A stretch of DNA of 42,675 nt from Candidatus Woesearchaeota archaeon. GTDB taxonomy: Archaea; Nanobdellota; Nanobdellia; Woesearchaeales; UBA525. This document shows positions 8,513 to 32,173 of the stretch, piece by piece. The notes under the pieces were generated by a model. The model was not told the origin of the DNA, made no database searches, and saw only the letters and a list, made by a program, of their open reading frames with translations. The DNA lies in NCBI GenBank assembly GCA_014874255.1, contig JACWAN010000096.1, positions 1 to 42,675 of the forward strand, written 5' to 3'. Position 1 is the stretch's first letter, and every line of letters starts with the position of its first letter. The position numbers and the translations under genes were made by a program.

Positions 8513-8550
8513 GCTGGCCACGGCTTGTTTTTGCTTCTCTCCTCCGTTCC

Positions 8551-8665
8551 GCGGCCGCCGCGGAGAAATTGTCCTCCCTCCGGTCCGGGGCTTTGTCGGG
8601 CGCTCACCATAATGGCGCCGCGGCGCCATGTTCGCGTCCAGGTCTTGTTCCAAGGCGGCGGCCGC
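8551..8665 (-). repeat. Family-1 structured intergenic element, copy A (candidate ncRNA)
   Basis: Minus strand: GCGGCCGCCGC...GCGGCGGCCGC 11-bp outer stem, ATGGCGCCGCGGCGCCAT palindrome, and conserved core CGCCCGACAAAGCCCCGGACCGGAGGGAGGA shared with copies B and C. Confidence 0.7.
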
Positions 8666-8770
8666 AGCGCTGAGTGTGCAGACTGCTCTTTGAAGATGGC
8701 CGTGTATTTCAGGGCGGATAGGAAATCAAGAAGAGAAAGGAAAATCTGAAAAAAAGGGTTTCTGGAGGCC

Positions 8771-12671: not shown

Positions 12672-12808
12672 ACGGGGATGGAAAGGAAATCCCGTTCCGT
12701 TTCTCCGCTCACACCCCTTCGATTCGCGAGGGAAAGGTGACGAAAGGACGGCCCAACATCCCTTCCCTACCTCTCTTCCCGACATCTCGTCCCTACAGCT
12801 CTTCTCAT

Positions 12809-12986
12809 GAGGAATGCCGCCTTGGATTCGTGCCGGGCGCGAACATGGCCGAGCGTTTTTGCGAGACTCGTGTTCGGAGAACGCGAGGATCGAGAACGAA
12901 GCGTAGCTGAGCGACCGAGGCCATAATCGTAATCGCCCGACAAAGCCCCGGACTGGAGGGAGAATAGATTCTCCGCGGCATTCTTC
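12809..12986 (+). repeat. Family-1 structured intergenic element, copy B (candidate ncRNA)
   Basis: Outer stem GAGGAATGCCGC / GCGGCATTCTTC (one G.U); ATGGCC...GGCCAT inner stem; core CGCCCGACAAAGCCCCGGACTGGAGGGAGAATAGATTCTCCGC. Confidence 0.7.
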
Positions 12987-13028
12987 GGACTAACGACGAA
13001 ACACAGTTATTTTTCAATCAAGAATCCT

Positions 13029-19604: not shown

Positions 19605-19769
19605 GGCTCTTCGGCAAATTCGCTTTGCGGTGTTGCCGGCTGCGACCCGTGTCGCTGTGTTCTTCGCGTCAGCGGAGCTCCCCGTAGGGGGCAACCCCCT
19701 CTCCTCCTTCGCTTCATTCTCTGCTACGGGTCGCCCTTTGGCCGGCAACACATCATTTGCCTAAGAGCC
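19605..19769 (-). mobile_element. MITE-like foldback element, family 2, copy D (165 bp)
   Basis: TIR GGCTCTTCGGCAAAT / ATTTGCCTAAGAGCC; flanked by perfect 9-bp direct repeats CATAGCGCC at 19596-19604 and 19770-19778. Confidence 0.9.
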
Positions 19770-19825
19770 CATAGCGCCGCAATCTTTATATTGCTCTCGG
19801 AATCCGCTCCGGACAGGTGGGGGCG

Positions 19826-26503: not shown

Positions 26504-26552
26504 GCCGCTGTTCGTCTTGGGTCTTCGCTCTTTTCTTTTTTTCTTATTCGTC

Positions 26553-26720
26553 GGCTCTTAGGCAAATGAGGTGTTGCCGGCCAAAGGGCGACCTGTAGCG
26601 ATAAGAAGAAGCGGAGAGTTGAGGGGGATGCCCCATCCGGGGCTTCAACGATGCAGCGAAGAACGCAGCGACACGGGTCGCAGCCGGCAACACCGTCGAA
26701 GGCGAATTTGCCTAAGAGCC
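26553..26720 (+). mobile_element. MITE-like foldback element, family 2, copy E (168 bp)
   Basis: Perfect 15-bp TIR GGCTCTTAGGCAAAT / ATTTGCCTAAGAGCC; perfect 9-bp direct repeats TTATTCGTC at 26544-26552 and 26721-26729. Confidence 0.92.
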
Positions 26721-31762: not shown

Positions 31763-31825
31763 ACAACCACCCCGCTTGGTTGTTTCCGGCAGCGACAGAC
31801 GATTTAAAAACTTAATGAAAAGGTT

Positions 31826-31990
31826 GGCTCTTAGGCAAATGGTGTGTCGCCAGCCAAAGGGCGAGGCATGCAAAGAAAACGGCGGAAGAGGTCGGGGGGT
31901 TGCCCCATCCGGGGGTGACCGGTGCAGTGACTTTCCGAGCGATTGCCGAGCAGCCGGAGACACCGCCGGAGGCGAATTCGCCTAAGAGCC
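31826..31990 (+). mobile_element. MITE-like foldback element, family 2, copy F (165 bp)
   Basis: TIR GGCTCTTAGGCAAAT / ATTCGCCTAAGAGCC; perfect 9-bp direct repeats GAAAAGGTT at 31817-31825 and 31991-31999. Confidence 0.92.
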
Positions 31991-32024
31991 GAAAAGGTTC
32001 TTGTTAGGAAGTTCTCTTTCGAAG

Positions 32025-32173
32025 GGGCGCTGCCTTGGAACGATTTGCCGGGCGCGAGCATACTCGCTCCGTTCGTAGTGTTCGCTTCGCGAACAGATGC
32101 GGCCGCGGCCGCATAATCCTGAGCGTCCGACAATGCCCCGGACCGGAGGGAGGATAGATACTCCGCAGCACCC
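32025..32173 (+). repeat. Family-1 structured intergenic element, copy C (candidate ncRNA)
   Basis: Outer stem GGGCGCTGC / GCAGCACCC (one mismatch), palindrome ATGCGGCCGCGGCCGCAT, core CGTCCGACAATGCCCCGGACCGGAGGGAGGATAGATACTCCGC. Confidence 0.7.

What the first reader, a model, noticed from the sequence alone, without database searches (positions are those of the whole stretch)
12809..12986. Family-1 element copy B: three-copy intergenic family with covarying outer and inner stems, a strong candidate for an undescribed ncRNA
All three copies share the order GCCTTGG..., (C/G)GGCGCGA(A/G)CAT, variable hairpin, (C)ATAAT/ATTAT, CG(C/T)CCGACAA(A/T)GCCCCGGAC(C/T)GGAGGGAG(A/G)A..(T)CTCCGC. The outer stem is completely different in each copy yet pairs: GAATGCCGC/GCGGCATTC (B), GCGGCCGCCGC/GCGGCGGCCGC (A), GGGCGCTGC/GCAGCACCC (C, one mismatch). 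CGGGCG/CGCCCG and CGGAG/CTCCG can also pair. Conserved loops plus sequence-variable stems is the pattern expected of structured RNA, and differs from TIR-defined MITEs, whose ends should be alike.
Basis: partly seen in the sequence, partly recalled or inferred. Interest (0 to 1): 0.8.

Follow-up and report, generated by a model that had tools for sequence, protein, structure and literature searches.

The report
Archaeal palindromic repeat mimicking a ncRNA
The three copies seen in this window belong to an undescribed family of hairpin-shaped repeats with at least 122 copies in one small archaeal genome and relatives across the Woesearchaeota; their matching stems look like a conserved RNA, but the evidence points to a dispersed palindromic DNA element whose stem arms change together.

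Summary
Copies A, B and C are real; a covariance model finds 122 copies in this 1.29-Mb genome, 67 in a sister species, fewer in other relatives, and family members in about 5% of genomes of the order (Woesearchaeota by record title). Rfam has no match. The unit is a closed three-way junction: variable outer stem P1, CTT bulge, GGN/NCC pairs, P2, P3. Covariation is massive (460 double-change cells in 54 sequences), but its character argues against an ordinary ncRNA gene. G·T and A·C mispairs are equally rare (33 vs 28), arms change together at every divergence, no TATA-like promoter precedes the elements (1/71 vs 21% of gene starts), and there is no clear orientation bias to neighbouring genes. 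The copies are intergenic, patchy among species, sometimes inside transposon ends, and twice at gene starts. At several loci shared with the sister species the outer stem stays while the interior is exchanged. I conclude: a new family of palindromic, MITE/RPE-like dispersed DNA elements, probably homogenised by gene conversion. How it moves is not shown, and an RNA role is not excluded.

The parts
12808..12987 (+). Copy B, whole element (180 nt, closed by P1)
   Evidence: in the R1 own-genome list; RNA fold z -4.1
12808..12820 (+). B: 5' arm of outer stem P1 (TGAGGAATGCCGC)
12821..12823 (+). B: conserved CTT bulge between P1 and P1a
   Evidence: J1-J3 invariant or nearly so in 55 copies
12824..12826 (+). 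B: 5' strand of P1a (GGA), pairs with TCC 12972-12974; third pair covaries A-T/C-G over the family
12834..12839 (+). B: base of P2, 5' strand (CGGGCG)
12845..12924 (+). B: upper P2 (ATGGCC/GGCCAT) with a copy-specific extension
12934..12939 (+). B: base of P2, 3' strand (CGCCCG)
   Evidence: read
12948..12963 (+). B: P3 hairpin region with lineage core CGGACTGGAGGGAG at 12949-12962
12964..12974 (+). B: rest of the linker and 3' strand of P1a (..TCC)
12975..12987 (+). B: 3' arm of P1 (GCGGCATTCTTCG)
8549..8667 (-). Copy A, whole element (119 nt, 13-bp P1); best own-genome R1 score
   Evidence: DNA fold z -2.6
32025..32173 (+). Copy C, whole element (149 nt; P1 GGGCGCTGC/GCAGCACCC with one mismatch)

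Best explanation
This is an interspersed palindromic DNA element, MITE-like and similar in behaviour to Rickettsia palindromic elements, native to a clade of Woesearchaeota. SHOWN: a compact unit of about 100-200 nt closed by a 9-18 bp inverted repeat (P1), then a CTT bulge, GGN/NCC pairs and an interior of P2 and P3 hairpins. It is scattered mainly in intergenic DNA, at least 122 copies in this genome. Stems pair by Watson-Crick rules with no preference for G.T over A.C mispairs. At several loci shared by sister species the outer stem stays while the interior is of another type. INFERRED: copies spread as a folded single-stranded hairpin or as cargo of resident transposases. Once resident, they are homogenised by gene conversion through the conserved junction, and the arms are kept complementary by arm-templated correction and/or a need for the folded DNA. 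That would produce RNA-like covariation without RNA selection.
For: Copy number 122/67/26/14/12/0 in six congeners; 10 of 371 genomes in a phylum-wide draw, all of the same order. Intergenic in all gene arrangements: divergent 20, convergent 18, antisense to both 17, sense with both 9. No promoter signal on either strand (Fisher p 3e-5). Pooled stems: 1866 WC, 33 G.T, 28 A.C; own P1: 600 WC, 15 G.T, 12 A.C. Double/single changes about 6:1 at all divergences. Near-identical interiors with different P1. Sister-species loci: same P1 with a different interior at L057, L091 and L053; an internally deleted remnant keeping P1 at L078. Associations, by reading: inside TIRs of an IS with TTAAAGTTC repeated at both ends, between IS200/IS605-like end hairpins, and inside another TIR with CTCTTGAAC repeated at both ends. 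In frame at the N-terminus of a signal-peptide-like ORF and overlapping the start of a gene downstream of a pelota-like gene.
Against: No transposase has been tied to the simple copies, and Y1 transposase presence does not track copy number. No target-site duplications were found for simple copies; the weak excess of short flank repeats is mostly repeats within the palindromes. No clean empty site was obtained. At most sister-species sites that could be aligned on both sides the element or a remnant is shared, so recent jumping was not seen. Junctions and loops are strongly conserved over families, which needs a function or frequent conversion. The RNA control for the G.T/A.C test is small: 9 tRNAs, 4 G.T and 0 A.C.
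Confidence: 0.58

Rival explanations
1. Undescribed trans-acting structured ncRNA, many paralogous genes per genome.
For: Three covarying helices, conserved junction and L2 loop CGATTCATGCAG across families; retention at loci shared by sister species, and at L045 4 of 15 P1 pairs differ with all four compensated.
Against: No TATA-like signal upstream on either strand; G.T not above A.C; up to 122 copies yet absent from close relatives; interiors exchanged under unlike stems.
Confidence: 0.14
2. A read-through RNA element (processing, stability or termination hairpin) used in whatever transcript crosses it, like REP/BIME sequences.
For: Intergenic placement in all gene orientations, stable folds, retention at shared sites.
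Against: Sense-with-both-genes is the rarest arrangement (9 of about 64); the conserved three-way junction is more than a stability hairpin needs; G.T/A.C symmetry.
Confidence: 0.13
3. Plain MITEs: non-autonomous copies of ordinary TIR or IS200/IS605 insertion sequences.
For: Copies inside IS terminal repeats in SI073_bin58 and in 36_9, and between IS200/IS605-like hairpins in UBA10207 and UBA153.
Against: Most own-genome copies have no shared ends beyond P1, and P1 differs between copies; unlike ends surround the same core in different genomes; simple copies show no target duplication.
Confidence: 0.1
4. P1 is a pre-existing palindrome into which the core inserts.
For: Near-identical interiors with unlike P1.
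Against: Only one perfect palindrome with arms of 10 bp or more in 64.6 kb of element-free intergenic DNA, the chance level; P1 sequences form related subfamilies.
Confidence: 0.03

Closest known systems
Rickettsia palindromic elements (RPE) and the similar Wolbachia elements
   Same: About 100-150 bp palindromic repeats, many copies, scattered between genes, able to sit in frame in genes, folding into stable hairpins (general knowledge; the literature search returned papers naming them).
   Different: Archaeal host, three-way junction with invariant CTT bulge and GG/CC, variable outer stem, mostly intergenic; no sequence comparison with RPEs was made.
MITEs
   Same: Short, non-coding, inverted ends, high copy; some copies lie within IS terminal repeats with a repeated flank sequence.
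   Different: Simple copies have no common terminal sequence and no detected target-site duplication.
REP / REPIN sequences
   Same: Intergenic palindromes in high copy number.
   Different: REP sequences are conserved in sequence; here stems vary freely and the junctions are conserved; Y1 transposase does not track copy number.
Integron attC sites
   Same: DNA hairpins with variable sequence, conserved fold and extrahelical bases.
   Different: attC has conserved outer boxes and a single hairpin in cassette arrays; here the outer stem is variable, the form is a three-way junction, and copies are dispersed.
Structured ncRNA families of Rfam 15
   Same: Conserved loops with covarying helices.
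   Different: No match at gathering score in the window, and no credible weak hit on the element in related loci.

Membership tests
Structured ncRNA gene | Covarying helices beyond shuffled and slid controls | tested here: met
Structured ncRNA gene | G-U pairs tolerated, so G.T clearly exceeds A.C | tested here: not met
   33 vs 28 in 77 copies; 15 vs 12 in own P1; small tRNA control 4 vs 0
Structured ncRNA gene | Own promoter upstream | tested here: not met
   TATA-like motif at -30..-21 in about 1% of 71 elements, against 21% of 163 gene starts
Structured ncRNA gene | Transcript with defined ends | not testable with these tools
   no expression data
Rfam family | Match to a curated covariance model | tested here: not met
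Cis-regulator / riboswitch | Consistent sense orientation upstream of genes | tested here: not met
   arrangements 20/18/17/9
MITE | Common terminal inverted repeats plus target-site duplication | tested here: inconclusive
   seen by reading in composite copies; not in simple copies
MITE | Mobilised by a transposase in trans | not testable with these tools
   an IS-like copy shares the TIR in G288; movement needs experiment
RPE-like palindromic element | Multi-copy dispersed palindrome of about 100-150 bp | tested here: met
RPE-like palindromic element | Found in frame inside protein genes | tested here: inconclusive
   one N-terminal in-frame case and one start-overlap case; the scan of own and related copies found mainly spurious GC-rich frames
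RPE (the Rickettsia families themselves) | Sequence homology to known RPE families | not tested
   no RPE sequence was compared
attC site | Conserved R'/R'' boxes at the outer ends, cassette array | tested here: not met
   outer stem is the most variable part; copies dispersed over contigs on both strands
REP/REPIN with RAYT | Y1 transposase accompanies the repeats | tested here: not met
   Y1 hit in G000 and G004 but not in G001, G003, G005, G006, G008, G009, G039 or G170; present in several genomes without a detected element

The most novel reading that the evidence does not exclude
A hairpin element whose locus keeps its own palindromic outer stem while the interior is replaced as a cassette at a fixed CTT/GG...CC boundary, and whose two arms are written from one another. 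That would be a folded single-stranded DNA element with a movement or exchange chemistry not described for archaea, leaving complementary flanks where ordinary transposons leave direct repeats. The short G005 variant keeps only variable P1, CTT and GG...CC, which fits that boundary being the recognised part.
Probability: 0.2. Interest if true: 0.85.

Novelty: new variant of a known kind. Interest (0 to 1): 0.58.

Why it matters
The family would pass standard tests for a new ncRNA (multi-copy, intergenic, three covarying helices, no protein coding), yet its mispair pattern and concerted arm changes point to DNA. It is a natural test case for telling RNA selection from palindrome maintenance in comparative ncRNA discovery: G·T versus A·C counts, and double versus single changes by divergence. 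It also documents an undescribed, very dense repeat family, one copy per about 10.6 kb, in small DPANN archaeal genomes, with sister species close enough to study its turnover.

Tried and rejected
Rfam at gathering and permissive thresholds: nothing for the element. Literature: nothing on Woesearchaeota with structured RNA or miniature inverted repeats; unrelated hits for noncoding RNA and for DPANN palindromic repeats. Viral contigs: no match to the type-b pattern. Insertion into pre-existing palindromes: palindromes are absent outside elements. Target-site duplication of simple copies: no clear sign. Protein-coding origin: mostly spurious frames. Y1 transposase as mobiliser: no correlation. 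Clean empty site for copy B in four congeners: B absent, but intergenic DNA too diverged, and G001 holds another hairpin there.

Full report
1. What is there. The window is contig C75 of a 1.29-Mb, 122-contig, 81.5% complete MAG. The same element occurs in MAGs titled Woesearchaeota in GTDB contigs; UBA153 (DASH) appears to be the relative listed as G001, since a contig of the same length, 104447, occurs in both. Copies A (8549-8667, -), B (12808-12987, +) and C (32025-32173, +) were re-read. The exact core gave 6 places, two mismatches gave 77, and model R1, built from 29 copies, gave 122 at E<=0.01, about one per 10.6 kb.

2. Anatomy. In 55 simple copies the strongest mutual-information pairs include the P1 pairs, J6-L10 (A-T 32, C-G 19) and K-1/L1 (T-A 39, C-G 10). 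This gives P1 (9-18 bp), a CTT bulge, P1a (GGA/TCC or GGC/GCC), a junction, P2 in at least two types, and P3. Type a P2 is CGGGCGCGAACATGGC..GCCATAATCGTGAGCGCCCG; type b has loop CGATTCATGCAG. Some copies carry extra inserts in the P2 loop, between P2 and P3, or in the P3 loop. In other genomes P3 is also sequence-variable while the L2 loop and CTTGGA are conserved. Six short variants in G005 reduce to P1-CTT-GGCGC..GCGCC-P1' or P1-CTT-GGCCC..GGGCC-P1'.

3. Distribution. Copy numbers with up to 150 candidates scored: own 122, G004 67, G005 26, G001 14, G003 12, G002 0. In a draw of 288 genomes of the order 15 have a match; in 371 of the phylum 10 match, all in the same order. These two searches cap candidates per genome and lose weak matches. 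The pattern scan of 85,462 species gave 76 stretches, most from a handful of Woesearchaeota MAGs; the bacterial hits I read lacked the structure and look like chance. No viral contig matched.

4. RNA or DNA? Covariation is very strong. But G·T and A·C mispairs, which differ for RNA and not for DNA, are equal: 33 vs 28 of about 1942 pairs (p 0.61). Between copies, double changes exceed single ones about 6:1 at every identity level up to 0.85-0.90; sequential compensation would leave more singles among close pairs. The alignment used there had been thinned of near-identical rows, so the very closest pairs are few. The elements lack the TATA-like signal of gene starts and have no clear orientation rule (gene calls are from a home-made codon model). 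Flanks are pyrimidine-rich 5' and purine-rich 3', unexplained.

5. Turnover. Copies with 83-96% identical interiors differ in up to 6 of 9 inner P1 pairs. Flanking DNA in G004 matches G000 at about 80-95%. At the sites I aligned: nearly the same element at L048-3275; same P1 with a different interior at L057+2420, L091 and L053; P1 with four compensated differences at L045; P1 partly unmatched at L043; a different P1 and interior at L038; an internally deleted remnant at L078; similar P1 with unrelated interior at L077; no element seen at the second L048 site; and a different hairpin at L068 where G004 has the element. I read this as old residence with interior exchange, most simply gene conversion; no formal conversion test was run.

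6. Transposon links, by reading. In SI073_bin58 the element fills a MITE with ends GGCTAATATGAAATCC; in one copy TTAAAGTTC stands on both sides; a longer sequence with the same left end starts an open frame. In UBA10207 and UBA153 it sits between hairpins with TTTA/TAAA loops that resemble IS200/IS605 ends (a recalled resemblance, not tested). In 36_9, GGTAAAGTCAAG ends with CTCTTGAAC repeated. In G005 it lies in frame before a signal-peptide-like segment, and in G006 it overlaps the start of the gene after a pelota-like gene, where G008 lacks it and G009 has a different copy.

7. Verdict. A new family of dispersed palindromic elements that works like MITEs/RPEs; membership in either is not claimed, since simple copies fail or leave open the MITE features and RPE homology was not tested. 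The movement mechanism is inferred only.

Noticed in passing
window 19613-19771 (-), 26552-26720 (+), 31823-31991 (+): A second repeat family with inverted ends GGCTCTTAGGCAAAT / ATTTGCCTAAGAGCC and internal palindromes (GTGTTGCCGGC/GCCGGCAACAC); one copy lies just upstream of copy C, and part of another appears inside a family-1 copy (L033). MITE-like.
   Followed up: partly
L098:1350-1475 (G001, site orthologous to copy B): A different large inverted-repeat element (CTGGCGCG..CGAGAAC / GTTCTCG..CGCGCCAG) occupies the same intergenic gap as copy B; unlike hairpin elements recur at the same gaps in related genomes (also L068 vs L239).
   Followed up: no
L280-L285 (G005): Short variants of about 49 nt: variable P1, CTT, GGCGC/GCGCC or GGCCC/GGGCC, loop around GACATACGAAGTGAGA.
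   Followed up: partly
G000 elements with P3-loop inserts, e.g. L034, L052, L077, L087: Recurrent modular inserts (GTTCCGGCTCTGTAGCGGCGGAACC..., ACTCTGGTTCGAAGAACCAGAGGATCAGGAGCTCGG...) in the P3 loop, also hairpin-like; another set sits between P2 and P3 (ACACAACGAATTCGGAGAATTCGTGCGCCCG...).
   Followed up: no
flanks of own-genome elements: 5' flank pyrimidine-rich for about 30 nt, 3' flank purine-rich for about 15 nt, seen over all gene arrangements pooled.
   Followed up: partly
L254, L257 (G005): Paralogous genes with signal-peptide-like N-termini; one carries the element in frame in the n-region.
   Followed up: partly
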